A stretch of DNA of 31,577 nucleotides from a virus. The stretch spans positions 1 through 31,577 of IMG/VR virus record IMGVR_UViG_3300021961_000381; one strand, written 5' to 3'. The notes beneath the pieces were generated by a model, which was not told the DNA's origin, did no database searches, and saw only the letters and a list, made by a program, of their open reading frames with translations. The position numbers and the translations under genes were made by a program. Below, piece by piece: positions 1,374 to 19,452 of the stretch (positions within the stretch are counted from its first letter, which is position 1; every line of letters starts with the position of its first letter).

Positions 1374-1389
1374 GAAAAAAACTTTTTTC
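1374..1389 (+). promoter_or_regulatory. A-tract/T-tract leader of terL without Shine-Dalgarno site
   Basis: The 16 bases between the stop of the 104-aa gene and the terL ATG read GAAAAAAACTTTTTTC, with arms GAAAAAA and TTTTTTC that are self-complementary. No AGGAGG-like site precedes the terL start, unlike most other genes here. An A/U-rich leader may recruit ribosomes through protein S1, or the sequence may lower terL expression by pairing. Either role is inferred. Confidence 0.4.
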
Positions 1390-3255
1390 ATGTCGTCAGA
1401 TGAACTTGTGACTGATCCGTCGGTCATTGCGGCGTTAGAAGCCGAAATTGCAGAGTCAACGGAACATGTTGACCCGATCCCGCAGGCTGAGCCGTACAAA
1501 GAGTCCGTTCATGTTCTTGGCCGTTCCAAAAAATATATGGAAGCCAAACAACGGCGGCTTGCCATTATTGGACATTTACGGACAGGCAAATCGGTAGGTG
1601 AGGCGTGTGAACTGGAAAAAATTTCTTACTACACGTACGCCTCGTACCGGCAACGATTCCCTGACTTTGCAGCCAAATGTGACGAAGCCCGCCAACTGTC
1701 CATGTTGGGCACCGACGCTGGGTATGACGGCTCCGCCGCTTCTTTTATCACCCAATACTTTGGGCATGTGCCGACATGGTTCCAACTGTTGTTTATCAAC
1801 GAATTAGAAAACACGCCGCCCGGAAACATTCTACTTGTACTTTGGCCCCCCGAATTCGGCAAAACAACTACATTTGAGAACCATGCGTCTAGAAAACTGG
1901 CAATCAATCCGGCGATGCGTTATCTGGTGGCGAGTGAATCGCGGGGCATTGCTCAGAAAATTCTTGGGCGTTGCCTTGACCGTATGGACCCGTTCGGACC
2001 GTCACCAGAATACGTTGAGCGTTTCGGTCCGTTTGCACCACAGCAAGGCGACGGACGAGTTCGCCAACCGTGGTCAGATTTACGATTTCGAGTCCGAGGA
2101 GCCAGAACCTCCGACGAACGAGACTATTCCATGCTGGCAGTCGGTGCGGGTTCTAAAAACATTGTTTCTACTCGTACTGATCACGCCCACGTTGACGACA
2201 TCCAATCGACCACAACGCTAGGCCAAACACAAAAATTTGTGAACTGGTTCCGACAAGACCTGTTGTCACGTCCCGGCGAAACTGGTATCACAACGGTATG
2301 CGGCACCCGTGTAGCCGAAGGCGACTTTTATGAAGCTTTGTTAGACGACGAAGACCTTGACTCGTCCATCATGAAAGTAATTCGGTTTCCTGCTATCATC
2401 ACCGACCATGACACCGGAGAAGAACGATCCTTATGGCCCGAAAAATGGCCGCTTGACAAACTGGAACGTCAGAAAAAGAAAGTTGGTTCTGAAGCGTGGG
2501 ACCGAAACTACATGCAGAACCCCGGAATATCATCCCGAGGCCGTGGCACATTTGATAAAAGCATTATCGAACCGTGCAAAGATTCGGACTTATCGTTAAC
2601 CCAGCATCCCACTGAGGGAAGCATTGTTTACATTGGGGTAGACCCCGCATTAGGCGGCAAAAACTGCATCATTGCTGTTGAAGCTACACCTGACTACCGG
2701 CTAATTGTACGGCGCATCATTGAAGACGTAGACTTCAAAACCAACAGCCAGATCATTGCCCGCATCCAAGACACCGTAGAGTTCTGTGCTGCTGGCGGTG
2801 CAAGCGTCACCGACGTAGTAGTCGAAGCAATGGCGTTTCAAAAAGGTCTTGTTCACGACGAAAACCTTTTAGAGTTACGCGACTACTGGGGGTTCGCAAT
2901 CCGTGACCATTTGACTGGCTGGAACAAATACGACCCCGATATTGGTGTCCCGTCAATGGCCGAATCTTTCCGAAAGCACGAAATTGTGCTACCGTATGGA
3001 GAAGATTCTTATACGCGGTTTGAAATCGATGAACTTGTACGGCAGTTGTATGCATGGAAACCCGGAGTAAAAGGTAACCGGTTACGTCAAGACCGTGTAA
3101 TGGCGTTATGGTTTTGTTGGATTATGTGGCGGGAACGTTGGAAACGGCCCGCTAACGGAGCAAGCACAATGAGTGACGGATTCAGACGAGAAGGTTTACC
3201 GTATCGGGCAACGCGCAGCGGTCTGTTGCTTCCTTCCAATCTTAGGAGACTGTGA
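1390..3255 (+). CDS. terL: terminase large subunit (packaging ATPase-nuclease)
   Basis: The 621-aa product is the motor that cuts concatemeric DNA and pumps it through the portal. The N-terminal ATPase has a variant Walker A at about 153-160 (PPEFGKTT), Walker B at 266-270 (AHVDD) and a coupling segment around CGTRVAEGDF (304-313). The C-terminal RNase H-like nuclease shows the acidic residues D418 (in YIGVDPALGG), E479 (VVVEAM) and D568 (RQDRVM). Residues 50-105 look like a helix-turn-helix (GKSVGEACELEKISYYTYAS), unusual for TerL and reminiscent of small-terminase DNA-binding domains. No separate small terminase is seen in the window. The start has no Shine-Dalgarno site. The portal gene overlaps its stop as TGATG. 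Confidence 0.93.
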   Translation: MSSDELVTDPSVIAALEAEIAESTEHVDPIPQAEPYKESVHVLGRSKKYMEAKQRRLAIIGHLRTGKSVGEACELEKISYYTYASYRQRFPDFAAKCDEARQLSMLGTDAGYDGSAASFITQYFGHVPTWFQLLFINELENTPPGNILLVLWPPEFGKTTTFENHASRKLAINPAMRYLVASESRGIAQKILGRCLDRMDPFGPSPEYVERFGPFAPQQGDGRVRQPWSDLRFRVRGARTSDERDYSMLAVGAGSKNIVSTRTDHAHVDDIQSTTTLGQTQKFVNWFRQDLLSRPGETGITTVCGTRVAEGDFYEALLDDEDLDSSIMKVIRFPAIITDHDTGEERSLWPEKWPLDKLERQKKKVGSEAWDRNYMQNPGISSRGRGTFDKSIIEPCKDSDLSLTQHPTEGSIVYIGVDPALGGKNCIIAVEATPDYRLIVRRIIEDVDFKTNSQIIARIQDTVEFCAAGGASVTDVVVEAMAFQKGLVHDENLLELRDYWGFAIRDHLTGWNKYDPDIGVPSMAESFRKHEIVLPYGEDSYTRFEIDELVRQLYAWKPGVKGNRLRQDRVMALWFCWIMWRERWKRPANGASTMSDGFRREGLPYRATRSGLLLPSNLRRL

Positions 3256-5129
3256 TGCGTGATTTTGAAACCATTCGTCAGATGACGATTGATTTGCAGA
3301 ACAACCGGACTCCGGTTATCCGCAAGATGCAAGAAATCCAGTCGCATTACGAAGGCGATCTTGTTATCCCTATGCCGGATGTCGCGGACGAACCCGACAT
3401 GCCGAACCTTACCCCGTCACTTATCACTGACGTTGTTGACGGTCTTTCTTTGCGTGCAGCTTCCGTCAAGCCGTCTGTGTACAGTCCGGCGTTAGACCCG
3501 TACAAAGAAGTCGGTGTCCGTTCTAAGCAGATGGCTACCGACCGTCGCCGTATCCTGTCTGCCACTTACCATCACAACGGATGGGCATTACTGCGTCGCC
3601 GTTACCTGCGGCACCTGAACGCGTACGACACGGCCAGCGTGTTTATCGAACCGGACTTCCAGACTGGTATGCCGCGCATCCGTGTCCGCGACCCGTTAAT
3701 GACGTTCCCCGAGGAACGAGCATTAGAGTCAATGGACGCACCAGAACACGTCGCGTTTATTACCCGTTACTCGGGCGACTATCTACGTAAACGATTCCCG
3801 CAAACAATGGCGGAACGTGGCGGACCTATTACTAACGCTGATGTGTCCGAAATGTGGGACGTGTTCGAATGGGTAGACAGCGAACAAATGCGGTTTGGTT
3901 TGCTTGGACCTGTGTTCCAGAACGGCGACCATATCTACCGTGATTACAACATGTTTAGCGGCCCGTGGATGCCGTTGACCGATCCGATTGTGAACCGTGC
4001 AGGGATGTGTCTTGCAATTACGCCGGGTGCTGTCACCTTGCACCGGATCGGAAACCGGCTTAACGCGTTGCTGGAAAACGCTAAGTGGCAGTCTAAGCTG
4101 TTGGCGTTAGACATTCTTGCACAGGAAAAAGCGGTGTTTCCTGACATGTATGTGTTGGGATCGCGAGGAATGTCACCACGGTTAGCTGACGGCCAATGGC
4201 ACGATGGGCGTGACGGCGACATCAACATCGTAACTGACGCAGAAAAAATTGGCACCCTCAATCAGATGCCTGATGTACGTACGTCACAGATGGTGGACCG
4301 GTTAGAGCGCAACTTCCGTGTGTCTGCCGGTTTGAACCCAATGTTTGGTGGCGAAACGCCGGGAGCTGCGTTACGTACTGGTCGTGCGTTAAACGAAATG
4401 GCCGGAATCAGCGTCGATCCGCGCATTCTTGAAATTCACGAGATTGACGAAGTGTGGATGCCGCATGTCAACAAAGCCATTCTGTCTTGCTACAAAGGCT
4501 GGTTTGGTAACAAGAAGTACACGTTGTTTTCGGGTTGGGCTGGGGACCGTGGACAAGTGGAGTTCGTTCCCAACAAGACAATTGAGACGACTGATAACAC
4601 GGTGTCGTATGCAATTCCGGGTGCCGACATTGTTCAAGTCACGCAGGTGCTTGGCTCTATGCTTGGTGCGCAAACTATTTCGACGGAAACGTTCCAGCGT
4701 CATCATCCGTGGGTTGAAGACCCGCACAGCGAACAGACGCGTATCAATGATGAGAAGTTGGAGCGTGGCGCAATTGACGGCATGTTGCAGCAAGTGATTA
4801 GCGGTCAGATGCCAATGGCGGTTTTTGCTCGCATTCGCGAAAAAATGAAAGATGGCACGATGGATGTGTTTTCGGCTACCGTTGCCGTTGATGATGAGAT
4901 TCGTGAGGAACAAGCTCGTGCGGCTGAAGCGGCGCAGGCTGATCAGCAGGCGATGATGGAACAGCAGCAGGGCAACTTGATGGCTCAACTTGGTTTGGCT
5001 GCTGGCCCGCAGGCTGCGGCTCCGGGTGCAATTCCGCCTGAAATGATGGCGCAGGGTGGAGCGCCGCCACCCGGAGGTCCTGTTGAACAAATGAGAGCCA
5101 TGATGCAAGCTGGTGCAGGAGCGGTCTAA
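3255..5129 (+). CDS. portal protein
   Basis: The 624-aa product should form the dodecameric ring at the packaging vertex, through which DNA enters and leaves. The identification rests on length, position directly after terL and portal-like traits: an N-terminal helical region, a beta/helix clip region, the GLNPMFGGETPGAALRTGRA segment in the middle (typical of the portal core in actinophage-type and SPP1-type portals) and a long helical C-terminus. The last 85 residues are Gln-, Ala- and Gly/Pro-rich, probably flexible. I chose the ATG at 3255, which overlaps the terL stop (TGATG) and lies behind TTAGGAGA, over the GTG one codon earlier. The next gene overlaps its stop as TAATG. Confidence 0.85.
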   Translation: MRDFETIRQMTIDLQNNRTPVIRKMQEIQSHYEGDLVIPMPDVADEPDMPNLTPSLITDVVDGLSLRAASVKPSVYSPALDPYKEVGVRSKQMATDRRRILSATYHHNGWALLRRRYLRHLNAYDTASVFIEPDFQTGMPRIRVRDPLMTFPEERALESMDAPEHVAFITRYSGDYLRKRFPQTMAERGGPITNADVSEMWDVFEWVDSEQMRFGLLGPVFQNGDHIYRDYNMFSGPWMPLTDPIVNRAGMCLAITPGAVTLHRIGNRLNALLENAKWQSKLLALDILAQEKAVFPDMYVLGSRGMSPRLADGQWHDGRDGDINIVTDAEKIGTLNQMPDVRTSQMVDRLERNFRVSAGLNPMFGGETPGAALRTGRALNEMAGISVDPRILEIHEIDEVWMPHVNKAILSCYKGWFGNKKYTLFSGWAGDRGQVEFVPNKTIETTDNTVSYAIPGADIVQVTQVLGSMLGAQTISTETFQRHHPWVEDPHSEQTRINDEKLERGAIDGMLQQVISGQMPMAVFARIREKMKDGTMDVFSATVAVDDEIREEQARAAEAAQADQQAMMEQQQGNLMAQLGLAAGPQAAAPGAIPPEMMAQGGAPPPGGPVEQMRAMMQAGAGAV

Positions 5130-5563
5130 TGCCTCGCAAAAAGAAAACGTTATCAGGTGACGCGACTCAAACGGTTCAGTCCGTTCCGGGTCAGCGATAT
5201 GGTGAAGGTGTTGCGCAAGAAGCAATGCAACAGGCAATGCCAGCGCCGTTACGTGCCGGTCAAGGCCCTGCTATTACACCGAGGCCTTCGGCTGTTCCTT
5301 TGCGCACAAACCGTGGAGAACCGCAGCAAGCTGCACCGTTGGAATCTGGTGTTGCAGAGTTATTAAATAATGTTCCTAAAAACATGTTGAGGCAACCCGG
5401 CAATTCGGCAAATGTTCCGACAGCAGGCATTTCCGTTGGTCCGGGCAGTGGCCCCAATCTTGGTTATATGGGCAACAACATGAGTCCGTACAAACGTACG
5501 TTAATGACCTTAGCTATGAATACTAATAATCCTGTTATTCGCCAGTTGTGGGAGTCGTTGTAA
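5129..5563 (+). CDS. hypothetical protein between portal and giant protein
   Basis: The 144-aa product has a basic N-terminus (PRKKK), then a Gln/Pro/Ala-rich, probably disordered stretch, then a compact end containing NMSPYKRTLMTLAMN and NPVIRQLWESL that looks helical. No family is recognised. Its ATG overlaps the portal stop (TAATG), and it ends one base before the giant gene, so it is translated as part of the same chain. It could be a portal-associated or internal head protein, since small disordered proteins of this kind often bridge portal and core. This is only positional inference. Confidence 0.7.
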   Translation: MPRKKKTLSGDATQTVQSVPGQRYGEGVAQEAMQQAMPAPLRAGQGPAITPRPSAVPLRTNRGEPQQAAPLESGVAELLNNVPKNMLRQPGNSANVPTAGISVGPGSGPNLGYMGNNMSPYKRTLMTLAMNTNNPVIRQLWESL

Positions 5564-5564
5564 T

Positions 5565-8500
5565 ATGCCGTGGACTAATCCGCAGCAACCTGCTGACGAT
5601 AATGAAATCCAGCTTGATGCAGATCGGCAGGCATACAACTACGAGATTGTTGTTGATGCTAATCCATGGATGGCAAATTATCCCGATGTTGCATATCAAA
5701 TTGCCAACTCGGGGATGAGCCCTCAGCAACTGCAAGAACAATCCATCAATTTGTTTTCGCATTTACAAGCCAACCAGTTACGTAGTGTATTGCCAACCTT
5801 GTCAAACGAAGAACAACGATCTATCTACAATCAGCTTCCTGAATATGGCAAACAACTTTTGTCTTCGACTGGTTACATTCCTCCGGCCGGATACCAAGAA
5901 AACTGGGTTGATGACGCGCTAGGCGCGCTTGGAACGGTTGTTGCACTGCCGTTTATGCCTTTGCAAGCGTTAACACGCGTTCCCGTTGTTGGTGGTCCAA
6001 CCAAATGGGGTTTGAACGTAATGATGGAAATGAGCGATATGCCTGCTCGTTTGTATCGGACTGCACGCCAAATGGAACCGTGGGAAGTTGGCGTAATGGC
6101 GGCTGGCGCTGCACTCGGTGTTGCCAGTCGTGGACGTATTGCACGAGGCGGTTCACAATTCGGACGATTCCTTGCTCGTGCAGATGCTACGGCGCGAGGC
6201 ATTGGGCGCACCGGAGTTTGGGCTGCAACAGTTGCACCCCCAGCATTTGCCGGTGCGTATGTTGGAGGACAATTAACAGATTTAATTCCCGGTCCTACCG
6301 ATTTTAATGACGCGTTTAACAGAGCAGCAGACGGCGAAAGTTTGTTTTTGCCTCAAGCATATGAACAAATTGCAGAAATAAGCGTTGATACACGTGTTCA
6401 AAATCTTGCACGAAACGCAGCTTTTTATCTTGACGAATATGCGTTGCGTGGCAGTGGGCGCACACTTGCCGAAGAATTAGCATTAGATGTTGCCTCCCAA
6501 CGCGACTCATTGAAAGACGAAGTATACCGGAATTCGGCTCAACAATTTATTGCGGAAAATTATATTGATGCCAATGATCCACGATTCCCGCAGTTCAGCC
6601 AAGCATTAGCTGAACTACTTGCAGACGAACGGTTTATGGAAATGGTTCGTATTTTGCAAAACAACAAAATTAGTTTTGGTCGCGACGTTGCCAACACACT
6701 CAAATTAGAACCCGGGACAACACTTTATAATCTTGTTTCAGGAACCGCTGATGCAACGTTTGTTTGGATGAACGACCCATTCCTCGGTTCAGTTCCTTAC
6801 TTCAGTTCAGCACGTCGAGGAGCATTAACGCTCGGCCCGTACGCACCACAACACGGTTCAGGATGGATGTTCCGCAAAAAGCCGCCATCCAACATGACCA
6901 ACATCGAACGCCGCATTTGGCTAAGTGAACAAAACGTTCGCAACATGGGTCGCGTTGACGATGACATTGTAGCCGCATTAAATGCTAACGACACTCGTTT
7001 GTTGCCTCAGCAATATCTTCCTGTTTGGGACACAATGCGAACCCATTTTACGGCTACGCAACATTTAAACGCCACCGGCAAAACTGTACGCGAAATTACA
7101 AAAGCCGACCTTTACATGTTTTATCGGCACACCGACAACGTTACATCGTTGCTTGGCGGCGAAGCTTTGGTCAAAGGTTTGCCATACGACGTGGTATCAA
7201 ATCGTCGTGCCAATATTAATCAAGGCGCATTACGACGTGGACTTCGCGAATTCCGCGCCAAATTAACAGAACCAACATTCGCAGTTCGCATCAATCAGCT
7301 TGCTAAAGAACATGGCGTTGACGCAGATGTCGTTTTGAAAAACGATATTTCACCAAATCTTGGAATTGATTACTCTCCGCCCGTTGGTGAAATTCCAGAC
7401 AGTCTGTCGTTGGCCGGAGGAATCGTTGGCAACGCATTAGGCAAAGCTAATGCGACAGTTAACCAAATTACCAGAACGCAAGGAACACTCGGACAGTTTG
7501 TTGACAGCATTTCAACTATGTCGCAAACTACACCGTTTGTGCCGTTGATTGGTCAAGGCGCAGAACAAGGCATTACTCGCCTTATTAACACGCTTGGCGT
7601 ATTAGCCCGAATGCCATATCGATTGCGTGAACAAACAATTGCCAACATTCTCGCAATCAACACCGTTGCCGGACGACGCACCGCGATCCGCGCATTTTAC
7701 AACCAGTTTTTTGAAATTACCGGTATTAAATATCGTCCACGCGGACAAGAATTCATTGACGATTTTATTCAAAAAAGCGAACAAGCATTTGGTTACAACG
7801 GTGCGGACCTTGCTGTAAACCCGGGACTGAACGAACTTGTTGGCAAAGCCGGTTTAGACGCAGGTCATCAATCTCATTTCCTTGCTGTTCCATCAATCAA
7901 AGAATTATCACGAGCTGTTCGTGACGACATCTACATGAACAGCTTGATGGGTGTCACCCGCAACGGACAGTTCCTTGATGTTGGCATGAGCAAAATATGG
8001 AAACCTGCCGTGTTGATGCGATACGGATTCATTCCTCGTGCCGCAGGCGAAGAAGCATTGGCATGGGTCATGCGCGGAACAGAATTTTCTGTCATGCAAA
8101 ACATTGGTGCTCGTCAAGTTGCCAAATACGAATTATATAAATCCGTTAGCGAACAATTGCAGAGTGGTGCACGACTGTATCAGTTAAGCCCAGCAGAACG
8201 AGCTGTTGTTGACAAACGATTGTTCAAACACATTCATGGGCCAATGGAACGTCTTGTTACGCAACAAGGCACTAACGTTTCACGCATCCGGCAAACTGCT
8301 GGCCGCATGATGGGGCCCGCTGAACACTTAGTTCTTAAAGGCTACGAAAGTTTTGTTCGGTGGCTTGGTCGTTACAAAGGTGTACCACAACTTGATGCAA
8401 TGCTTCGCCAAATTGGCAAACGGAGCAAAAATCTTGAAACGTTAATTGCTGGCAGAAAACACTCATGGACTTATTTTGGTGCCAGAGGATTAGCACCAGA

Positions 8501-11500
8501 ACTTGTTCAAAGTGCGCACCGGTATACCCGATTGCACGCAGGAACAATGGCCGGAAGTTTGTCGGCCAGAATGCACAACCAGTTTAATACAGACATGGGT
8601 CGAATTGAACCCGCGTTTTTGGTTCAACGATCATTAGAAAACGGCAACACACCAATCGTTGTAAATGCGGTTGGCGGTGTTCGTCAACGTGTTAGTCAAG
8701 CCGATAGTGTTTATCCCCGCGCATATTGGGAAGAAGTACACAGCAAACTAAACGACGATCCACTCAAAGCACCATTGTACGCAGAGGAATTACCACGTCG
8801 TCCGCCAACAACGGAAACATCTTATAACCCGGTTAGCACCTCAAATATCCTCACGTTTGTTGATGAACTTGTTGCTAATGCAAACACACCAATCTCAGAT
8901 ATTGTTTTGCATTTAGCAATGCTTGAACCTGATTTGTGGCGTGTTCTTGCTGACAGATTAAATGCTTCTGTTATTCCAGAAGAAAACGTTATTGGTGCAG
9001 CAATTGCTAATTCAATGAGCACCGGAACTTTTGATTTCGACAAATTAATGGACGGATTGCGAAGCGTTGTTGCTCCCGGCGACCGAGCACGAATAATTGA
9101 AATGTGGGGATATTTAGAAAACGCATCTCCTAACGTTCGTGGTTATACAAAGGCACTTATTGCGCAACACCGAAATGCACCTATTGCACAACAGTTGCCC
9201 GCAGGAGCATTACTACAACCTCCGGGCGTTGGCAGAGGCCAACGGTTGTACATGGGCAAAACACCCGGCAAAAGCGCGTTTTTGTTTGATGTTGATCCAA
9301 TAACCGGCGACCTAATTATTACTTCAACTTGGCAACCTCAGTGGTCGCCATCGTCAAGCATTAGCATGTCAATTGATCCGTACCATTCAATGCGGTACGC
9401 AATTTCAAGCTGGGAAAACATTAACAGCCCATACACGGGAGCCTTGTTTGAAATTGATGCCGATTGGTTGATGCGCGAATTTGGTTTGACCTTAGATGAT
9501 GTACTGGCTCAGCCATCGTATTACGCTGGCGTGCCACAATGGTATGAACCGCAAGTTGTTCATACAGGTAGGTTTGGCGCATTACAAAGCGATTTCCGAG
9601 AAATTGCTATTAACCCTAATCCTCGCATGTGGGATAATACAGGCGACCCTCGTTATGCAAGCATGGCTCGCCTGAAAGATGCTGTCATTGAATATGACAC
9701 AAACGGACGGCGACTATTGCCGCAACAATTATTGGACGATGTTCAAGAATTGCTTGAAGCAACACCTGAGGCGTTGCGTAATCAAATCTTGAGTATGCAA
9801 AGAGCTTCACCTTTAGAAAAAACGTGGCGCGCGGGTGTTCCTTATGAACAATTGCCTTCAATTGAGCAGTTAGAAAACATTGTTACACAGTTGCGATCAG
9901 TTGATGAACAAGCATTCAATATTGCGCAAAGCCAACAAAGACAATTAATTGTTGACGATTTATTAGCTGATCCAGAAATTGCCGCAATGTTCGGCGATTT
10001 AACTGATGCCGGTATCAGGCAAGAAGCTGTTGAAACGTTAGAACGATGGGTTACGTCTGTTGACGGTTCGGGACGATTCCGTGGCGCTATCCGCGATTTA
10101 GAAGACACAATTAATCAAATGCGACTGGCAGAACAGCAAGTTGCTGATGGCGTAATGGCAGCGGATCAATTGTCATCGTTTGAAATATCTTTGGCATACG
10201 ACAATTTGCGTCACATGTTGGGCGATGACCGATTTGTTTCGCCTGTCGATATTCGTGCGGGTGGACATTTCAGGGATTGGGCACCTTCGACGTTAGGAAG
10301 AACGCAGTCCCTTTCTCCATTTTTAGATTCAATTCGCAGTTATTTAGATGACAACTATTTTAATACGTCAGTCCGCATTCCTCGTGAGCAATGGCGTGCT
10401 TTAGGCCAGCAAGAAATTGAAGGGATGTTGGATGAGGCATTGACTATTGCTGAGCCTGCTCGCAGCGAGTGGGCAACAATTTCAGACAGTTTGTTAAAAC
10501 GGCAAGCAATTAACGAACCTCAATTGGCTCTGCAATTGCCACGCATTCAACAAATTCGTAAAGATTTGTGGGACGTATCTGATGCGCAACGACAAGCTGT
10601 TACTGCGGTGCGAGATAAAATTAATAATCGATTGGCTCAGGTCATTCCGGGCACTTCAATTGACACGTTGAATTTCAATCTTGTTTTTGATTTGGCAGAC
10701 GCTGCACCTGATGTTGCACCAGTAATTCGTCAGATCAACGAAATTATTACTGAAGAGTTGCAAGCGTTGGGCCCAGAACTGGCAGATGCTATTGCGTTCG
10801 TAAATGACGCAGCGGATTTTTACAGTGAAGTGTTAAAGAACGCTGAAGGGTCTGGGTTCCGGGGCACAAAATTTGAAAGACTAGATGGTTATTACAGCCA
10901 GCATATGTCGGGAACACGGCTAACGGACGTTGGTGAATTTGTTCGCGTTATGTTGGGTGAGTCTCCAATTGAACCAATGTTGGCGGATGATGTGCATCGC
11001 ATTTTGTCGGGAGCGATGCGCGAAGCAGCCGAACGTTTACGCAACGAACAACTGGCTCAACCAGTCAGAAGTTTGTTGGAACCCGCATTGTTTGAACGTG
11101 GCATCAGCAGCACGTGGTTCAACCCATCAACGTACGACGAAGGTTATTGGCTGCTCAGCGATTTCTTAATGAACACAAATCAAAGAAATATGAGTTTTGA
11201 TCCGCGTGCTGCCAGTCAAGCATTACAAGATTTTTATATTGATGATGTGCATCGTTCAATAGCGGCCCGCACACAAGGCGGATTACCTCCTGCAAACAAA
11301 TCAACTGTAGCCACTAATGCTGAACTTGTTACTCGTTTGCAAGATCAATACAATGCACGATTTTATCGTCCCGAAAACTCGGACGTTTTGCAATCAACAG
11401 ATTTTAGTGTTGCGGTTCCACAAGGAACTGTCGCAAATCCTGTGCCGCAAAACATGACACGGTATTTCTTTCCTGAACTACGCAACACCGATAAACTTGA

Positions 11501-14500
11501 AGCCGCAATTAGGCAGCTTCGTGAACAGACTGGGTTCTTTGACATTGCTCGGGTAATTGAAAATCCAGACGGATCGTTGGTATTAAACCAAGTCCAGATC
11601 GAAGAATTGACACGGCTGCTTGTCCGCAACCAAGTTGATGCTGGTCCGCCAGTTGGTGTGATAAGTCGGATGACTGAGAATCAACGCGTACAGTTGTTAA
11701 CGCCTTTTGTTGAACAAGCGTTGCTTTACCCAATGGGTTCCGTTAATCAAGTCATCCGCTCGTTGGGTGTTGCTGATCCGCAAGTTGCGTGGTGGATTAC
11801 GGGTGCATTGTCAAATATTCGAGCCGACATTATGGCTGGCGGCATGAAAGGCATGAACCAGATTGACGTGCGTACGTCTACTGTGATGCTTGGCGACAGC
11901 CCAAATTTTGGTTCACGTCAGCAGTTGCTTCCCGAAACCTACGGCATTGAAACATACCGTTTAGAACCAGCATTGCAAAATCAAGTTTCATACGTGTCTG
12001 GAAATATTCTTGCTGACGGAACGGTAGGTGTTCACCGAGATACAGCAATTGCTGAATGGACGAGCCGCAGCATTGAAAGCGACATGCATTTATTTGCGAA
12101 AGGTTCTAAAGAAGAATATCAAATTATTGCTGATGTCTACCAATTAAATTCTACTACTGGCGAGCTTGATTTGATTCCTCGCGGCACAGTAGTTGACTCA
12201 TCCGTCCGTCAATTGTTTGATGCTGATGGGCAGCGAATTGATTACAACGACAAACGGTACTTGAAAGTAGTTGGTTCACAACAAGAAGATTTGAACTGGG
12301 CATTGTTAGGTCCAATGATCGTTGATTATTGGGAAGGCAGAGGGGGACGGCATCAAGTCATTCCTACCGGCGCAGCAGATATTGCAACTAACAGCATTAT
12401 CCCCGACGCAGATTTTATTCCCACTCGTCACAGTCGCGTCGATCACGTTGAGCAAATCAACAAGTTTGATAGACCGAATATTGTGATTGGACGACAGTAT
12501 TCGCTTGAAAAAGTTAACAAGATGTCGCAATTTGTTGACAACTTTTTTGAGAAACAAGTTGGTCCTGCGATTGACGCAATCGTCCGCAACCCAATGTCGT
12601 TTGCCGCGTACCACGAGGCACGGTTGACGAACATGAGCTACTTGCCTGATTTGTTAGATAGGCAAGTTATAGATGCGTTAACTAACGATGTGCGTTTGCC
12701 TGATGGCCGATTAATTCCGGGCGAAACCTTGATTGATCCCGCAATTTTAGATGAAATCATTGACGGTTACTTGCCGTATATGGACCCTGATACAGCACGA
12801 GCCGCTGCAATTTACCATGTATTAATTGAAGCCGTAGACGAAAATGCTCTTGCCTACTACAAAGAAGGGTTGATTACTGGCAACGCTGTTCGTGACGCTT
12901 CCACCTACGATTATTATGTTCCGGGTACTACTGGTCCAGAACGCATTGAATGGGACACTCCCAAAACTGGAAACGAAACAGCGATCCCCAAACAATTGCC
13001 CGAGGGTTTAAATTCGTTAAATATTTCGAACGAAATGCTTGATGCTCTTGCAACAATGCAAAAACACATTGAGCTAATTGATCGTTCCGCCGCGCAAAAA
13101 GCTATCCGCAATGTTGTTCCATTTATTGACTCTGCTGAGTTCAGATCAGTTTGGTCAGTAAAGATGAGCAACTTGTTGCCGTTCTGGTATGCCGAAGAAA
13201 ACTTTATGAAACGTTGGTTGCGTGGAGCCAACAACGGCATGTTCGGAATTGACCAAGTAGTTAAAGCCCAGTATGCAATCAACGGTTTGATGAATGCTGG
13301 CATCATGTACGAAGACAACGGAACCTATTATTTCAACTGGCCCGGAAGTGCAATGATCAACGAAATCGTTGGCACTGTATTTCGCGTCCCATTGTCTGGC
13401 ACAGCATTACGCAGCCGAGCGGACAGTCTGCTTCCCGGTATTAACCCAGAAGCAGGCCGCGTGTCCGGTGGCCCACTATTAAACATCCCAGTGTCAGCAT
13501 TTACCTATGTGCTTGGCGAAATTGCTCCGAGCCTCAAAGACGAAACAACCGAATTCCGGCGACACATTTTAGGTGACATCGGATCAACACAATCGTGGGA
13601 AAACCAGTTTGTGCCTGCAAGCGTACGACGTTTGTGGCGAACATTAACAAGTTACATGGGCGAAGATCGTTACGACGAAGCACTCATGGCAAATATGGTT
13701 AATGCCGCCATTAACCTTGATGCAGCTGGTTTGGGTTACGACGAACAAGCAACCGAAGAAGAACAACAAGTATTTTGGGACCGTGTTCGCACTCAAGCAA
13801 GATTCCACATGTTTGCTCAATTCGTGTGGGGTTTGTTCTTGCCGGGAAATCCACAAACAATTGAAACGTTGCAAAGCCCGTTCTCATTTGAGAACATTAC
13901 GGGAGTTGGATTAGAAAATCCAAGCAGTGTTGTCAAAGGAATGTACCTTGATTACATTCGTACGTGGGGTGTAGATGAAGGCACGTTGCGATTCTTGCGC
14001 GAGTTCCCGGACGCAAACATCAACTATGTTGTTAATCCTGAAGCGTATCTAGTGTCGCGTTCTGAAACCGTATCAGGTGCGCCGTTGCCGCCCAACGAAC
14101 AAAACCTTGTTTGGTTTACAGAAAACGAACAATGGATTAAATCATTGCCGCAAGCTTCGATTTGGTTTGTGCCAAACAAGTCTTACGAAAACGAAGAGTG
14201 GAATGATTACGCTTGGGCGGAACAATTTAGTAGCGATCTTCGTATCAAAAAAACGCCGCAAGATGTTATGGATGCTATTCATTTCCGTCGTGCGGCCCCA
14301 GCGTATTTCTTGCGAAAAGAAGCATACGAACAAATGCGTGCTGATGCGGGTGATAACGCAGAATTAAAACGGCTACTTGATGCTGATTGGGAAATGCAAA
14401 GCGCAAGCTATCTGCGCACTCATCCCATTTTTGCTCGCATGTTAGCTAATCGTGACGGCCAGCAACAGCGGCTGGAAACAATCGATCAAATGAGAGTTGC

Positions 14501-14741
14501 GTTAAACGATCCAGCTGCGCCTACGTCACCGTGGACTCCGGCTATTCGGGAATTGTTTAATAAGTGGAACGAGTTCCAATTAGTGCAAAGCGAGCTAGCA
14601 CTTGATCGCAGTAACCGTAGCGAGGAAGTTCGGGCGTATAATCGTACGAGTATGCAGAATTGGGTTGACGAATGGTTGATTCGTAATCCGCAGTTGGAAT
14701 CGTTGTGGGTGGCTATTTTTAAACCGGAGACTGATTTGTAA
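5565..14741 (+). CDS. giant 3,058-aa virion protein, putative internal or ejected protein
   Basis: One uninterrupted frame of 9,177 bases, far longer than normal phage proteins. The N-terminal 250 residues hold three hydrophobic, Gly/Ala-rich segments (about 118-135, 175-189 and 217-236) that could cross or disturb membranes. The rest is mostly mixed helical, with Gln/Leu-rich helices around 1385-1660. Residues about 1226-1355 resemble an ADP-ribosyltransferase fold (low confidence). Near the C-terminus are aromatic stretches such as SNLLPFWYAEENFMKRWLRG (about 2530-2550) and FHMFAQFVWGLFLPG (about 2747-2761). I find no RNA polymerase motifs, HExxH metalloprotease motif or coiled-coil tape-measure pattern. 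Its place between portal and scaffold fits a core or ejection protein acting on the host envelope or cytoplasm. It is less GC-rich than the capsid gene. Confidence 0.8.
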   Translation: MPWTNPQQPADDNEIQLDADRQAYNYEIVVDANPWMANYPDVAYQIANSGMSPQQLQEQSINLFSHLQANQLRSVLPTLSNEEQRSIYNQLPEYGKQLLSSTGYIPPAGYQENWVDDALGALGTVVALPFMPLQALTRVPVVGGPTKWGLNVMMEMSDMPARLYRTARQMEPWEVGVMAAGAALGVASRGRIARGGSQFGRFLARADATARGIGRTGVWAATVAPPAFAGAYVGGQLTDLIPGPTDFNDAFNRAADGESLFLPQAYEQIAEISVDTRVQNLARNAAFYLDEYALRGSGRTLAEELALDVASQRDSLKDEVYRNSAQQFIAENYIDANDPRFPQFSQALAELLADERFMEMVRILQNNKISFGRDVANTLKLEPGTTLYNLVSGTADATFVWMNDPFLGSVPYFSSARRGALTLGPYAPQHGSGWMFRKKPPSNMTNIERRIWLSEQNVRNMGRVDDDIVAALNANDTRLLPQQYLPVWDTMRTHFTATQHLNATGKTVREITKADLYMFYRHTDNVTSLLGGEALVKGLPYDVVSNRRANINQGALRRGLREFRAKLTEPTFAVRINQLAKEHGVDADVVLKNDISPNLGIDYSPPVGEIPDSLSLAGGIVGNALGKANATVNQITRTQGTLGQFVDSISTMSQTTPFVPLIGQGAEQGITRLINTLGVLARMPYRLREQTIANILAINTVAGRRTAIRAFYNQFFEITGIKYRPRGQEFIDDFIQKSEQAFGYNGADLAVNPGLNELVGKAGLDAGHQSHFLAVPSIKELSRAVRDDIYMNSLMGVTRNGQFLDVGMSKIWKPAVLMRYGFIPRAAGEEALAWVMRGTEFSVMQNIGARQVAKYELYKSVSEQLQSGARLYQLSPAERAVVDKRLFKHIHGPMERLVTQQGTNVSRIRQTAGRMMGPAEHLVLKGYESFVRWLGRYKGVPQLDAMLRQIGKRSKNLETLIAGRKHSWTYFGARGLAPELVQSAHRYTRLHAGTMAGSLSARMHNQFNTDMGRIEPAFLVQRSLENGNTPIVVNAVGGVRQRVSQADSVYPRAYWEEVHSKLNDDPLKAPLYAEELPRRPPTTETSYNPVSTSNILTFVDELVANANTPISDIVLHLAMLEPDLWRVLADRLNASVIPEENVIGAAIANSMSTGTFDFDKLMDGLRSVVAPGDRARIIEMWGYLENASPNVRGYTKALIAQHRNAPIAQQLPAGALLQPPGVGRGQRLYMGKTPGKSAFLFDVDPITGDLIITSTWQPQWSPSSSISMSIDPYHSMRYAISSWENINSPYTGALFEIDADWLMREFGLTLDDVLAQPSYYAGVPQWYEPQVVHTGRFGALQSDFREIAINPNPRMWDNTGDPRYASMARLKDAVIEYDTNGRRLLPQQLLDDVQELLEATPEALRNQILSMQRASPLEKTWRAGVPYEQLPSIEQLENIVTQLRSVDEQAFNIAQSQQRQLIVDDLLADPEIAAMFGDLTDAGIRQEAVETLERWVTSVDGSGRFRGAIRDLEDTINQMRLAEQQVADGVMAADQLSSFEISLAYDNLRHMLGDDRFVSPVDIRAGGHFRDWAPSTLGRTQSLSPFLDSIRSYLDDNYFNTSVRIPREQWRALGQQEIEGMLDEALTIAEPARSEWATISDSLLKRQAINEPQLALQLPRIQQIRKDLWDVSDAQRQAVTAVRDKINNRLAQVIPGTSIDTLNFNLVFDLADAAPDVAPVIRQINEIITEELQALGPELADAIAFVNDAADFYSEVLKNAEGSGFRGTKFERLDGYYSQHMSGTRLTDVGEFVRVMLGESPIEPMLADDVHRILSGAMREAAERLRNEQLAQPVRSLLEPALFERGISSTWFNPSTYDEGYWLLSDFLMNTNQRNMSFDPRAASQALQDFYIDDVHRSIAARTQGGLPPANKSTVATNAELVTRLQDQYNARFYRPENSDVLQSTDFSVAVPQGTVANPVPQNMTRYFFPELRNTDKLEAAIRQLREQTGFFDIARVIENPDGSLVLNQVQIEELTRLLVRNQVDAGPPVGVISRMTENQRVQLLTPFVEQALLYPMGSVNQVIRSLGVADPQVAWWITGALSNIRADIMAGGMKGMNQIDVRTSTVMLGDSPNFGSRQQLLPETYGIETYRLEPALQNQVSYVSGNILADGTVGVHRDTAIAEWTSRSIESDMHLFAKGSKEEYQIIADVYQLNSTTGELDLIPRGTVVDSSVRQLFDADGQRIDYNDKRYLKVVGSQQEDLNWALLGPMIVDYWEGRGGRHQVIPTGAADIATNSIIPDADFIPTRHSRVDHVEQINKFDRPNIVIGRQYSLEKVNKMSQFVDNFFEKQVGPAIDAIVRNPMSFAAYHEARLTNMSYLPDLLDRQVIDALTNDVRLPDGRLIPGETLIDPAILDEIIDGYLPYMDPDTARAAAIYHVLIEAVDENALAYYKEGLITGNAVRDASTYDYYVPGTTGPERIEWDTPKTGNETAIPKQLPEGLNSLNISNEMLDALATMQKHIELIDRSAAQKAIRNVVPFIDSAEFRSVWSVKMSNLLPFWYAEENFMKRWLRGANNGMFGIDQVVKAQYAINGLMNAGIMYEDNGTYYFNWPGSAMINEIVGTVFRVPLSGTALRSRADSLLPGINPEAGRVSGGPLLNIPVSAFTYVLGEIAPSLKDETTEFRRHILGDIGSTQSWENQFVPASVRRLWRTLTSYMGEDRYDEALMANMVNAAINLDAAGLGYDEQATEEEQQVFWDRVRTQARFHMFAQFVWGLFLPGNPQTIETLQSPFSFENITGVGLENPSSVVKGMYLDYIRTWGVDEGTLRFLREFPDANINYVVNPEAYLVSRSETVSGAPLPPNEQNLVWFTENEQWIKSLPQASIWFVPNKSYENEEWNDYAWAEQFSSDLRIKKTPQDVMDAIHFRRAAPAYFLRKEAYEQMRADAGDNAELKRLLDADWEMQSASYLRTHPIFARMLANRDGQQQRLETIDQMRVALNDPAAPTSPWTPAIRELFNKWNEFQLVQSELALDRSNRSEEVRAYNRTSMQNWVDEWLIRNPQLESLWVAIFKPETDL

Positions 14742-16156
14742 TGGGTATTCAAATTGATATTGATCCCGCTCTTGAAAGCGCACCAAGTACTGGTTCGCCT
14801 TTAACTGTTGAGCAAGCAGCAAAACAAATTAAAAGCTATTTGAACAATCCAGCATTGTTCAATGTGCAAGTTGATCAAAACTACGAAATTACGTTGGATG
14901 AGTTTACAACTCTTATTGCCGAATCATTACCAGAAACGTTGTTAACTCCAACAACCTTGTTAACTATTGACTACCGCTATTTGGTAAACGAAGCAGCAAC
15001 AAATGAAGCTACTCCGCCACAGATCAAATCATTTTTAGTTGATCAACAAATTGGGAATCAAATTAATGAAGGTTACATAAACCAGTACGCTAACAGTACG
15101 GGCATGCAAGTTGATTTGATTCGTAGCCAATGGGCTACCACTGCGCCAGAACCAGTTCGTTTAACGTTGAGCCCATTACCGACAGGACAAGAAACGGTTG
15201 CTGGTGCTGGTATGCCGGGTTCTTTTTATAGTCCAGAGATGATGGCTGCTTTGGCTGGCACGCAGTCTAGCCGCGCTTATTCAAACGAAGATTTTATAAA
15301 ACTGTTTCAGTTTGACAGCAATTGGCAAAACGCTTGGAACATTTTTATGGATCAGCAAAGCAAGGGATATTTTCCAAGCGATGATGCTGACGTAGAACCA
15401 ACACCGTTGTACAATTTTACGTGGGAAACCGCTGCTCCTGATCCGGGTTCGATCATGGGTTCCGATGCGGAACGTGGTCCGACAGGTGTGTTGGGTATTC
15501 GCAATCGTGTTCGCAATATGAGTCCTGAAGAAGTACAAGTGTTTGTTACCAAAATGCATATGGCTGGTATTTTTGAAGATATCGGTGCGTATCCGGATCG
15601 TGCGTTTTCTGGTTCTGACCAGTTCATTCAGCTTGGTTTGGATCGGATTATGGCGTTAAGTATTGAGCAGGGCGGTATTGGTTTGGAAGAAGTGTTGCGG
15701 AGGCGCACTGACGAACGCAAAACTAATCTGTTAGACAGAGTGCAGAATGCTAATATTTCTGTTGTGCAAGAAACACTTCGTTCAATTGGTGTCAATATTT
15801 TGGGTCGCCCGTTGACGCAAGAGGAATCGTTGCAGGTGTTAGCAAGCCTTGAAGAACTAGCACCGGAGTTTGCCGAGGCCCAGTTGGGCAAGGGTGTATC
15901 TGTTGAGGACATTATCACAGATATTGAAACTGTTGACGAAGAAGAAATGTTGACGTATTCGCGGGTTGTTGAGGACATGTTTAAACAGCAGGCAGGTAAT
16001 TTCCGTGGATATAACAGAACGCGTTCTGTTGGAGATTATTTACGGTCGCGTGATCGTGGTGGTAGTGCTGCTAATGATGGCGGATATTCACCTACTGCGT
16101 TTGAAGCATCTGTAGAAACCGTTGAAGATATTCAGGGAGCGTTAGAAAATGGCTGA
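14741..16156 (+). CDS. putative internal virion protein
   Basis: The 471-aa product is soluble and acidic, with no signal peptide. It is mainly helical from about 240 on (MSPEEVQVFVTKMHMAGIF, LTQEESLQVLASLEELAPEF). Around 390-410 is an acidic patch (DIETVDEEEM), followed by a basic stretch (RGYNRTRSVGDYLRSRDRG) and a disordered tail. No named family is recognised. The gene starts inside the giant gene's stop (TAATG) and overlaps the next gene by 8 bases. Such overlaps and the position before the scaffold suggest it is made with the giant protein, in the place where podoviruses encode core or ejection proteins. The role is inferred. Confidence 0.75.
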   Translation: MGIQIDIDPALESAPSTGSPLTVEQAAKQIKSYLNNPALFNVQVDQNYEITLDEFTTLIAESLPETLLTPTTLLTIDYRYLVNEAATNEATPPQIKSFLVDQQIGNQINEGYINQYANSTGMQVDLIRSQWATTAPEPVRLTLSPLPTGQETVAGAGMPGSFYSPEMMAALAGTQSSRAYSNEDFIKLFQFDSNWQNAWNIFMDQQSKGYFPSDDADVEPTPLYNFTWETAAPDPGSIMGSDAERGPTGVLGIRNRVRNMSPEEVQVFVTKMHMAGIFEDIGAYPDRAFSGSDQFIQLGLDRIMALSIEQGGIGLEEVLRRRTDERKTNLLDRVQNANISVVQETLRSIGVNILGRPLTQEESLQVLASLEELAPEFAEAQLGKGVSVEDIITDIETVDEEEMLTYSRVVEDMFKQQAGNFRGYNRTRSVGDYLRSRDRGGSAANDGGYSPTAFEASVETVEDIQGALENG

Positions 16157-17231
16157 CGGCGAGGATAAGAACGTTCCCGGTTCGATCCGGTCTATTGAAG
16201 GCGGCGAAGCTGCTATCGCCGAGGTAGGCGGAATTCCGTATCGGCCTGTAGACCATTTGATTCCTAACGTTGATGACGAAGATTACCAGTCATGGTTTCT
16301 TGGGTTTAACAATGCCGCGTATCTTCAATACGCTGATGAAACGTTTATTGACGAAGACGGTGTGCAACGCAAAGCCGGAGATTTTTTCTTTGAGTTGTTA
16401 AACGATCCGGGTTATACCGAGGCAACAATTGGGCCGCGTCTTGAATATGTGCTTTCACCGCGTGAAGTAAATGGTGTTTTGTATCGTGGGGCTACATGGT
16501 TTAACGATTGGGCGGAATCATTTGTTGATAACGAACAACGCATTATTGATTTTAACAATAGTGATGGTGCAGCTCAAGCTAATCAAGTTGCTAACGTTGC
16601 CGCAAACATTCGAGATCGTTCAGCCAAATTGGGTCTTGTACTTACAGAAGACGACGTGCAGCAAATGGCAACTATTGCGGTTACGTCGAACTGGAACGAC
16701 GCTCGCATTTTAGATCGTTTATTAGAAAACTTTAATTACGGCGAACTGCAAACGGGTGACATCACTACGTTTGTAGACAATCTTGAAATGATGGCAACTG
16801 ATTATCTTGTAACATTCACACCGGATCGTTTGCAAGATATGGCACAGCGTGTCTTTTCCGGCGAGTTAAGCGAAACAACCGTGAATCAAATGATTCGTGA
16901 TCAAGCGGCTGCTGAAATGCCGTTCTTGCAAAGTTATCTTGATCGCGGGCTAAAACCAATTGATGCATTCGGATCGTTAATTGGTACTGCTGCTAAAGAA
17001 TTAGAAATGGATTCATCAAACATTAGTTTGATGGACCCCAAATGGCGTGACGTAATGATTAAACAAAACGATGACGGCAGTAATCGTCTTGCCACTATGT
17101 CCGAGGTGCGAACATTTGTTCGTGATCTCCCAGAGTGGCAAAACACTGAGGCTGCTCGCAACACAGCACAAGAATTAGGTGTAGCACTTGGTTCAATTTT
17201 TGGACGGGGTTTCCGTAGAGGTGGTTTCTGA
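16149..17231 (+). CDS. putative internal virion protein
   Basis: The 360-aa product is acidic and Asn/Asp-rich, with aromatic patches (SWFLGFNNAAYLQYADETF near residue 45). A helical middle part carries a long acidic helix around VLTEDDVQQMATIAV, and the end is Gly/Arg-rich (GSIFGRGFRRGGF). No family is recognised. It starts 8 bases before the upstream stop and ends in a TGATG overlap with the next gene. With its two flanking genes it forms a block of three similar-sized, mostly helical proteins, plausibly internal head or ejection proteins working with the giant protein. That grouping is inference from order and size. Confidence 0.75.
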   Translation: MADGEDKNVPGSIRSIEGGEAAIAEVGGIPYRPVDHLIPNVDDEDYQSWFLGFNNAAYLQYADETFIDEDGVQRKAGDFFFELLNDPGYTEATIGPRLEYVLSPREVNGVLYRGATWFNDWAESFVDNEQRIIDFNNSDGAAQANQVANVAANIRDRSAKLGLVLTEDDVQQMATIAVTSNWNDARILDRLLENFNYGELQTGDITTFVDNLEMMATDYLVTFTPDRLQDMAQRVFSGELSETTVNQMIRDQAAAEMPFLQSYLDRGLKPIDAFGSLIGTAAKELEMDSSNISLMDPKWRDVMIKQNDDGSNRLATMSEVRTFVRDLPEWQNTEAARNTAQELGVALGSIFGRGFRRGGF

Positions 17232-18439
17232 TGGTTATTCCAGCTGATCTTGCAGCGTTCTTGCGTAGTCGTGCGCCCAAAACCGCACCAAAACCTGTCA
17301 CATCTGTACAGATTGGCGGTGGAGGTCGCAGGCCAAATCAAACGTTACAACAGTATCGTGCAGAAAAAGCAGCTGCTGCTGTAACTCCTTCACTGGAACC
17401 TGCACCTGAACCAGCGTCCGAACCAGCGCCCGAACCAGCGCCCGAAGCGTCAGCACCGGTATCAGCACCTGCTGCAACTCCTGCGGACACAACTAATCCA
17501 TTGCAAGACGAAGTTGATGCGCTTCGCCAAGAACTCGCCGATTTCCAGCAGAGTTTACAAGATGATCGACGCGCTGGTGTATATCGTGAACTTGAATCAT
17601 ATTTGCAAGCTATTGGTTTGGGTTCGTTAATGCAAACTGATTCGAATGGCAATCCAACAGGATGGTTATGGGAACAAGTTAAAAGCGGTGTAACAAGTTC
17701 TGCATCACTAGAAATTGCGTTACGTCAAACTCCTGAATTCCAGCAACGATTTGGAATTATTTTAGAACAGCAGCGGCGGGCAGCCGCAGGCGAAAACGTG
17801 TACGTAATGACCCCAGCCGAAGTGCTTGCATACGAAGTGGACGTATCACAAGCGTTCCGTACTGCGGGTTTGCCAACATCTTTTTACGATACTCCCGGAG
17901 AACTTCACCAGTATTTAAGCAACAATCTTTCTGGCGAGGATGTTGTCGGACGTATTGAAACAGCGTTTAATTATGTTGTTACGGCCCCTCCGGAAGTGCG
18001 CGCTAAGTTTGAAGAATTTTACGGGGTCGGACAAGGTGACATTGCGTTAGCAACGTACATTCTTGATCCTGATATCGCGGTGCGCGAGCTTGAAAAAGCT
18101 GGACGTACAGCGTACGCAGCTGGTGTAGCAGAAAGGTATGACATTCAGTTGGCACGTCAGCAAGCAGAACGTATTGCTGAAACTCCCTTAACTAACGTGG
18201 GCATTTCTGAAGGGCTGCAACAGATTGCTGCTCAGGCACCGTTGTTTGCTGAGTCGGTTGGCGAAGCAGTTGATTTAACTGCGGAAGAAACTGGTGTTGC
18301 TGCCGTCTTTGAAGGTTCGGGTGAAGCACGTACAGCATTAGAACGCCGATTGGCACAACGTCAAGCCGTAAACCGCGCAACTGTTGGCGGCGCAATTACT
18401 ACGTCTGCTGGTGTAATTGGTTTAGGTGTCGGCAACTAA
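17231..18439 (+). CDS. putative internal virion protein with Glu-Pro-Ala repeat linker
   Basis: The 402-aa product starts at an ATG inside the previous stop. After a basic N-terminus there is a low-complexity linker at about residues 56-75, built of EPAPEPASEPAPEPA units. A probable coiled coil follows (about 91-112, DEVDALRQELADFQQSLQDD), then a helical domain. The C-terminus (GGAITTSAGVIGLGVGN) is short, Gly-rich and hydrophobic, a possible membrane-active tail. No family is recognised. The Glu-Pro repeats act in other proteins as stiff spacers. It closes the first structural transcript; the next gene has its own promoter-like site. Confidence 0.75.
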   Translation: MVIPADLAAFLRSRAPKTAPKPVTSVQIGGGGRRPNQTLQQYRAEKAAAAVTPSLEPAPEPASEPAPEPAPEASAPVSAPAATPADTTNPLQDEVDALRQELADFQQSLQDDRRAGVYRELESYLQAIGLGSLMQTDSNGNPTGWLWEQVKSGVTSSASLEIALRQTPEFQQRFGIILEQQRRAAAGENVYVMTPAEVLAYEVDVSQAFRTAGLPTSFYDTPGELHQYLSNNLSGEDVVGRIETAFNYVVTAPPEVRAKFEEFYGVGQGDIALATYILDPDIAVRELEKAGRTAYAAGVAERYDIQLARQQAERIAETPLTNVGISEGLQQIAAQAPLFAESVGEAVDLTAEETGVAAVFEGSGEARTALERRLAQRQAVNRATVGGAITTSAGVIGLGVGN

Positions 18440-18457
18440 CCGGCAACTGTTTAATGG

Positions 18458-18463
18458 TACAAT
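18458..18463 (+). promoter_or_regulatory. candidate extended -10 promoter before the micro-genes
   Basis: TACAAT at 18458-18463 matches the -10 consensus at five of six positions and is preceded by TGG (18455-18457), the extended -10 signature. No good -35 is seen at the right distance, which extended -10 promoters do not strictly need. It lies 28 bases before the ATG of the lysine-rich micro-gene and just after the stop of the 402-aa gene. Confidence 0.45.
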
Positions 18464-18490
18464 GCGAAACACCAAACGATAGGAGTAGTT

Positions 18491-18912: not shown

Positions 18913-19452
18913 ATGAGTGAGGAAAACGAAGTGACCGAAGACGGGGCACCTGATCACATTAAGCAGTTACGTGCTGATGCGGAAAAGGGTCGGAAGCTTG
19001 AGTCCATGCTTGCCGATAAGGAACGTGAGATTGCGTTTCTTCAGGCGGGAATCAAGACTGATACCAAACTTGGTGCAATGCTGATGAAAACGTATGAGGG
19101 CGAGTTAACGTCTGATGCGATTAAAGCTGAAGCAGCGGAACTGGGTTTGATTGACAAGACTGATGATCCGGTTGAGTTCGGTGAGGATTCTCCTGAGGCC
19201 CAGTTGCAGCAGGCTCGTGAGAATTTGTCGGCTGGGCGTACTGCTACGACTGAGGTCCGTGGAGTGAACGCTGTAGATGCGGCGTTTGCCGAGTGGAACG
19301 ATTCTCGTAAAGAGGGTATGTCTAGCGGTGAGGCTCAGGACATGGCGTTTGCGTCGTTTATTGCGGCGGCGGCTCGTGGCGATTCATCCGCCCAGTTTGA
19401 TGAAGGAGCGTGGCGACAGAAATCTGCGATGTACGGACACGGATCAGGGTGA
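18913..19452 (+). CDS. capsid scaffolding protein
   Basis: The 179-aa product is acidic and highly helical, with a coiled-coil-like N-terminal half (HIKQLRADAEKGRKLESML, then ADKEREIAFLQAG) and a charged, flexible second half. This is the usual look of phage scaffolding proteins, which guide capsid assembly and then leave. Its place two genes before the capsid gene supports this. The short basic/aromatic end (EGAWRQKSAMYGHG) may bind the shell. The start is the ATG behind GGAG at 18905. Its stop overlaps the GTG of the next gene (GTGA). Confidence 0.82.
   Translation: MSEENEVTEDGAPDHIKQLRADAEKGRKLESMLADKEREIAFLQAGIKTDTKLGAMLMKTYEGELTSDAIKAEAAELGLIDKTDDPVEFGEDSPEAQLQQARENLSAGRTATTEVRGVNAVDAAFAEWNDSRKEGMSSGEAQDMAFASFIAAAARGDSSAQFDEGAWRQKSAMYGHGSG

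What the first reader, a model, noticed from the sequence alone, without database searches (positions are those of the whole stretch)
5565..14741. Giant 3,058-aa protein between portal and scaffold
A single frame makes up 29% of the window. It has no recognised polymerase, protease or tape-measure motifs, but has hydrophobic segments at the N-terminus and aromatic helical segments at the C-terminus. It is probably an internal protein ejected into the host and may carry unknown enzymatic domains.
Basis: partly seen in the sequence, partly recalled or inferred. Interest (0 to 1): 0.72.

Follow-up and report, generated by a model that had tools for sequence, protein, structure and literature searches.

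The report
Giant phage ejection protein, variable centre
This short-tailed virus of bacteria carries one enormous gene that most likely makes a protein packed inside the virus particle and pushed into the host with the DNA; related viruses keep both ends of the protein but swap the middle, some filling it with recognisable enzymes, so it may be a natural protein-delivery frame.

Summary
The 3,058-aa frame is real and coding. It lies between a portal gene plus a 144-aa gene and three further genes ahead of a scaffold-like gene and an SU10-type capsid gene. That order matches Streptomyces phages of the Beephvirinae, whose 1,646-aa gp10 is homologous by profile comparison. A profile scan matched 105 stretches in IMG/VR (giants of 1.6-4 kaa). 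They share N- and C-terminal blocks but differ in a central slot of about 330-2,160 aa.

In four distant relatives the slot holds named domains: AlkB-like dioxygenase, SLOG, DUF7831, weak NADAR. Two 98%-identical phages differ in the slot by exactly one whole domain. The window's slot contains a ~130-aa domain shared with six relatives. It looks ADP-ribosyltransferase-like, but no profile search supports that and its model is unusable.

Five close relatives have TerL, portal and capsid 75-99% identical but giants only 24-34%. In the sister phage the whole block from the 144-aa gene to the third downstream gene is replaced.

Best reading: a giant podophage ejection protein with an exchangeable cargo region. 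Packaging and ejection are inferred, not shown. No link to N4 vRNAP or T7 gp16 was detected. Tape measure is unlikely.

The parts
5565..14741 (+). giant gene, 3,058 aa
5565..8984 (+). N-terminal conserved part (residues 1-1140); blocks at ~380-430 (VSGxxDAxxxxxDP) and ~660-860 (WKPAVLxRxGFIPRAAGEE)
   Evidence: A1/A2 alignments, hmm blocks, region identities
8985..11369 (+). central variable slot specific to this protein (residues 1141-1935; only 160-185 of 795 residues align in the compact relatives L008, L009, L012)
9225..9824 (+). domain at about residues 1221-1420, best-supported stretch 1226-1350, shared with giants of L066, L040, L038, L069, L060, L076; ART-like motif order, unconfirmed
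   Evidence: negative profile tests; model pLDDT 39.8
11370..14738 (+). C-terminal conserved part (residues 1936-3058); 2150-3058 modelled, mostly helical, mean pLDDT 70, last ~180 residues about 90
5129..5563 (+). 144-aa gene; the exchanged block begins inside it (about position 5248)
14741..16156 (+). first gene downstream of the giant (471 aa), no match found in any relative by tblastn
16149..17231 (+). second gene (360 aa), C-terminal part matches phrog_6654, as do Manuel gp12/gp13 (NlpC/P60-type and SLT-type fusions)
17231..18439 (+). third gene (402 aa), phrog_8424, relative of Manuel gp14; in the sister phage this gene has an N-terminal LysM-like part
5248..18483 (+). block replaced as a unit between the window and its sister phage G003 (no long nucleotide similarity here; 92-96% identity on either side)
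1390..3255 (+). terminase large subunit
   Evidence: phrog_38, E 1.1e-39; Beephvirinae TerL
3252..5129 (+). portal protein
   Evidence: phrog_64, E 0.003; Manuel portal; position after TerL
18913..19452 (+). scaffold-like gene (phrog_7813; its Manuel relative also hits a head-scaffolding PHROG weakly)
19760..20917 (+). major capsid protein, SU10_MCP family
   Evidence: PF17236, E 4e-50
28354..30261 (+). phrog_11667 protein, shared with Manuel gp54; proposed tail nozzle (inference)

Best explanation
The gene encodes the giant member of an ejection-protein cassette of a short-tailed phage related to the Beephvirinae. Proposed steps: the protein is made late, packaged inside the capsid over the portal with the products of the three genes that follow, and leaves through the short tail ahead of or with the DNA. 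The conserved N- and C-terminal parts do the packaging, threading and envelope-crossing work (inferred). The central slot carries lineage-specific cargo delivered to the host at entry (inferred from relatives with enzyme domains there). In this phage the slot is ~795 residues long and includes a ~130-residue domain that may be a diverged ADP-ribosyltransferase. Shown here: the gene, its family, the conserved ends, the variable middle, a whole-domain indel in relatives, and replacement of the cassette as a unit between close phages. Not shown: packaging, ejection, any activity.
For: Same gene order as isolated Beephvirinae phages: TerL, portal, small genes, giant, phrog_6654, phrog_8424, phrog_7813, capsid gene. 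Profile homology to Manuel gp10 over both ends. Downstream partners in relatives carry LysM, SLT, NlpC/P60 or lysozyme domains, as expected for envelope penetration. Cassette exchanged as a unit. Slot enzymes in L107, L108, L100, L062, ART-PolyVal-like domains in the slots of L051 and L064, and loss of exactly one domain between 98%-identical phages. Precedents: N4/DEV vRNAP is a ~3,400-3,500-aa ejection protein in an operon with two others (PMC10925440, PMC12633501); P22-like ejection proteins gp16 are mostly only 22-26% identical between phages (PMC10883804).
Against: No virion proteomics or structure for any member was found. No sequence link to N4 gp50 or T7 gp16 (hhalign probability 1% and 0.25%) and no PDB fold match for the C-terminal part. 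Membrane segments are weak. The window's own slot has no profile match to any enzyme.
Confidence: 0.66

Rival explanations
1. It is an internal structural or assembly protein (inner core or scaffold) that stays in the capsid and delivers nothing; the variable middle is a tolerated spacer.
For: No direct evidence of ejection. Much of the window's slot, residues ~1421-1935, shows no recognisable enzyme.
Against: Enzyme-type domains in slots of relatives and exchange together with the downstream cassette suggest contact with the host rather than a static spacer.
Confidence: 0.14
2. It is primarily a polyvalent counter-defence effector carried in the capsid, with no conduit role; the conserved ends are only packaging signals.
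For: The domain mix in relatives (AlkB-like, SLOG, NADAR-like, ART-PolyVal-like) fits the polyvalent-protein idea (PMC5512222) and the NAD-ADPr theme (PMC9503650).
Against: Beephvirinae gp10 keeps the conserved ends with little room for cargo (1,646 aa), implying that the ends have a function of their own.
Confidence: 0.13
3. Tape-measure protein of a long-tailed phage.
For: Length and helix content only.
Against: It lies upstream of the capsid gene beside the portal. Gene set and order match Beephvirinae, which I know as short-tailed phages (own knowledge). No tail-tube or sheath match turned up among the window proteins scanned. The fold search gave only a weak tape-measure row (E 0.067). 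A ~795-residue region mostly absent from a sister phage is odd for a length ruler.
Confidence: 0.03
4. The sister-phage difference is an assembly chimera and the cassette is not really exchanged.
For: Both are metagenome contigs.
Against: Five related contigs from different metagenome records show the same split (TerL 76-99%, giants 24-34%).
Confidence: 0.04

Closest known systems
gp10 of Streptomyces phage Manuel and other Beephvirinae (phrog_10618)
   Same: Same place in the same gene order; profile homology over window residues ~644-935 and ~2500-3058.
   Different: 1,646 aa instead of 3,058; little room for a slot. No blast-level similarity beyond one short motif; function unannotated; the window protein itself does not match phrog_10618 by hmmscan.
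N4/DEV virion RNA polymerase (gp50/gp71)
   Same: Giant (~3,400-3,500 aa) ejection protein encoded in an operon with two other ejection proteins (PMC10925440, PMC12633501).
   Different: No detectable sequence relation (probability 1%); no polymerase domain found; different gene order.
T7 gp14/gp15/gp16 and P22 gp7/gp20/gp16 ejection proteins
   Same: Consecutive virion genes, fast divergence, mosaic peptidoglycan hydrolase (PMC8954989, PMC10883804).
   Different: T7 gp16 shows no detectable similarity; the giant is more than twice its size.
Polyvalent proteins of phages and conjugative elements (Iyer et al. 2017, PMC5512222)
   Same: Relatives combine disparate enzyme domains in one giant chain encoded among virion genes.
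   Different: No Pfam match of any kind, hence no LPD or other polyvalent-protein domain, in the window protein; the conserved ends are undescribed in Pfam.

Membership tests
podophage ejection proteins | encoded in a compact run of consecutive genes within the virion gene block | tested here: met
podophage ejection proteins | present in the virion and released during infection | not testable with these tools
   needs proteomics
podophage ejection proteins | sequence homology to T7 gp16 or N4 gp50 | tested here: not met
   hhalign 0.25% and 1%; DEV ejection proteins likewise lack detectable similarity to those of T7 (PMC12633501), so this limits membership, not function
podophage ejection proteins | peptidoglycan hydrolase or wall-binding domain in the cassette | tested here: inconclusive
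   met in relatives and the sister phage, none found in the window's three downstream genes
podophage ejection proteins | membrane-crossing segments | tested here: inconclusive
   borderline hydropathy only
Beephvirinae gp10-type protein | gene position and profile homology at both ends | tested here: met
polyvalent proteins | two or more domains of disparate activity in one chain | tested here: inconclusive
   met in L107, L100, L108, L062; window: one unconfirmed ART-like domain
ADP-ribosyltransferase superfamily (window residues ~1226-1350) | profile match to a known ART family | tested here: not met
   PF01129, PF18760, whole Pfam and PDB sequences negative
ADP-ribosyltransferase superfamily (window residues ~1226-1350) | R / STS / ExE-type motif order | tested here: inconclusive
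   order present in several relatives; the window has a non-consensus residue at the first motif; regex made after the fact
ADP-ribosyltransferase superfamily (window residues ~1226-1350) | ART fold | tested here: inconclusive
   model pLDDT 39.8, unusable
tape-measure proteins | gene downstream of the tail tube in a long-tailed phage | tested here: not met

The most novel reading that the evidence does not exclude
A widespread, undescribed family of giant phage ejection proteins built as a fixed delivery frame (conserved ends) with a central bay into which phages load exchangeable enzymes, often of NAD/ADP-ribose chemistry, and whose whole cassette is swapped between nearly identical phages like an immune-escape locus.
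Probability: 0.42. Interest if true: 0.78.

Novelty: new variant of a known kind. Interest (0 to 1): 0.57.

Why it matters
If the reading holds, it gives a family of natural single-chain protein-delivery vehicles, with a compact isolated form (Beephvirinae gp10) on which packaging and ejection can be tested and a defined region where cargo is gained and lost. It would also show that genome-entry proteins, not only tail fibres, are a hypervariable locus in these phages, which bears on why entry machinery diversifies: in P22-like phages the SieA exclusion protein is thought to act on the ejection conduit (PMC10883804).

Tried and rejected
Tape measure: rejected on gene context. N4-type RNA polymerase: no sequence relation. 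Lytic enzyme in the giant itself: no Pfam match. ART fold: AlphaFold of residues 1150-1460 with 7 rows gave pLDDT 39.8, useless; the slot profile against PDB and single relatives against PDB gave nothing; comparison with the ART-PolyVal-like slot of L064 was not significant. C-terminal fold: no PDB match by Foldseek (best E 0.78); VIA-align rows mostly cover the last ~70 residues with Z up to 6.5, a common helical arrangement; the best BFVD matches are unnamed or uncharacterised, three of the five marked as from uncultured phages. Single-sequence scans of IMG/VR with the giant found nothing, and with the sister's giant only itself. Bacterial and archaeal genomes: two metagenome-bin contigs only, no host inference. 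PDB searches with the phrog_11667 and phrog_7578 tail proteins: nothing. A motif-order regex (5 of 41 slots, shuffled mean 0.02) was written after seeing the sequences and is not independent evidence.

Full report
Observation. The frame 5565-14741 is a real gene of 3,058 codons: the two other frames of the strand hold 137 and 213 stops and codon-position GC is uneven. It starts directly after the stop of the 144-aa gene. Pfam and PHROG scans find nothing in it. G000 is a 31,577-bp virus record.

Context. The window encodes TerL (phrog_38), portal, a 144-aa gene, the giant, three genes (471, 360, 402 aa), a scaffold-like gene and an SU10-type capsid gene. The 360- and 402-aa proteins match phrog_6654 and phrog_8424, the families of Manuel gp12/gp13 and gp14; in Manuel the first two carry NlpC/P60-type and SLT-type N-terminal parts (annotated peptidase and glycosylase). 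The same order occurs in Streptomyces Beephvirinae, where the giant's position is taken by gp10, 1,646 aa. Direct blastp gives only a short motif, WKPAVLMRYGFIPRA against WKFAQLFRLGYAPRA, E 0.004, but profile comparison gives 94% (E 1.5e-7, 496 columns) for the C-terminal part and 91% (E 9.6e-7) for window residues 644-935. The same method finds nothing for N4 gp50 or T7 gp16.

Family. A TerL scan of IMG/VR gave 13 loci; all with enough sequence carry a giant in the same place. A profile of ten giants matched 105 stretches that encode a relative, of which the best 80 loci were kept (some are the same contigs as before). Complete frames run from about 1,600 to 3,950 aa. Recurrent blocks (hmm positions ~53-138, 334-430, 632-850, 1869-2614; the first or third falls below detection in the shortest giants) are separated by variable stretches; the largest, between blocks 3 and 4, spans about 330 to 2,160 residues. 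In the window this slot corresponds to residues ~860-2260, of which 861-1140 and 1936-2260 still resemble close relatives, leaving 1141-1935 as the part that compact relatives mostly lack.

Slot contents. Pfam on 41 slots: AlkB-like 2OG-Fe(II) oxygenase (E about 1e-24), DUF7831 (1e-33), SLOG types (cpYpsA 4e-29; YAcAr weaker), and below-cut-off NADAR and Phage_30_3, spread over L107, L108, L100 and L062. Single genes of Caulobacter phage phiCbK (gp136) and Sinorhizobium phage phiM9 (gp152) match the DUF7831 stretch of L107. L107 and L108 are about 98% identical phages, yet L108 lacks exactly the DUF7831 segment, in frame. ART-PolyVal gives weak matches at the slot of L051 and L064 (6e-4, 3e-3) and of L062, and two in a downstream gene of L099 (best 2e-7); reading the L064/L051 sequence shows the H, Y and D motif regions (YHGTT, GLYMTDN, GYDGF). 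All are under the curated cut-off.

The window's slot. Residues ~1220-1318 match L066 (3e-8), and a profile extends to L040, L038, L069, L060 and L076. Motif order resembles R-S-E type ADP-ribosyltransferases (YRG; SxS with A..Y; ElD; E[IV]xIPaGxW), clearest in L060, L066 and L076. In the window the first motif reads YMG and the last FREIAI, so activity is doubtful. No profile, PDB or fold evidence supports the assignment. I rate ART ancestry at about 0.4 and activity in this protein lower.

Cassette exchange. Sister phage G003 matches the window at 92% nucleotide identity over 674-5247, 96% over 18484-21553 and 94% over 26744-31577, with only short matches (at most 188 bases) over 5248-18483; alignments place the boundaries inside the 144-aa gene and just after the third downstream gene. 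Across five phages TerL is 76-99%, portal 76-96% and capsid 75-98% identical, while giants are 24-34%, the second downstream protein 29-41% and the third 38-51%; the first downstream protein (471 aa) finds no match in any of the 23 loci searched, some of which end before it. The window's giant is no closer to those of this clade than to those of phages with TerL near 40-53%. In P22-like phages ejection proteins are likewise among the most diverse virion proteins (PMC10883804).

Structure. The C-terminal 909 residues gave a usable, mostly helical model (mean pLDDT 70; last ~180 residues about 90). No PDB relative was found; the best viral-library matches, E 4e-14 to 2e-5, are unnamed or uncharacterised phage proteins. 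The N-terminal part and the slot were not usefully modelled.

Mechanism, with status. Packaged with partners: inferred. Ejected through a short tail: inferred; the tail proteins include phrog_7578 and phrog_11667 relatives, the latter shared with Beephvirinae, and short tails in that group are my own knowledge. Wall and membrane crossing by conserved parts and partners: inferred from wall-active domains in relatives. Cargo delivery by the slot: inferred from relatives. Why the cassette varies: unknown; escape from superinfection exclusion or defence is a guess by analogy with SieA.

Novelty. Giant ejection proteins (N4 vRNAP) and multi-enzyme polyvalent proteins are known; this family joins the two ideas with its own undescribed conserved ends, so I file it as a new variant of a known kind.

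Noticed in passing
18491-18590, + strand: Small lysine-rich reading frame (begins MYGAKKKKPAKKMAAKK) just outside the right edge of the exchanged block, conserved in the sister phage; the sister has an extra basic stretch inside its block.
   Followed up: partly
21362-26794: Repeated tail-fibre-like genes (starts MATNFP or MASNFP at 21362, 24211, 25906; paralogues 22547/23361); this region is also mosaic between the window and the sister phage.
   Followed up: no
19760-20917, 26797-28350, 30258-31265: Capsid protein and 517-aa protein both match phrog_1101 over a similar stretch, and a like motif is visible by eye in the 335-aa protein: a short domain shared across structural genes.
   Followed up: no
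26797-28350: 517-aa protein looks like a ~217-aa N-terminal extension fused to the ~300-aa phrog_7578 protein that stands alone in relatives.
   Followed up: partly
L107, L108, L100 giants, slot: Giant chains with AlkB-like, DUF7831, NADAR-like and SLOG domains; L107 and L108 differ by one whole domain.
   Followed up: partly
L099:15638-19618: 1,327-aa downstream gene with two weak ART-PolyVal matches.
   Followed up: no
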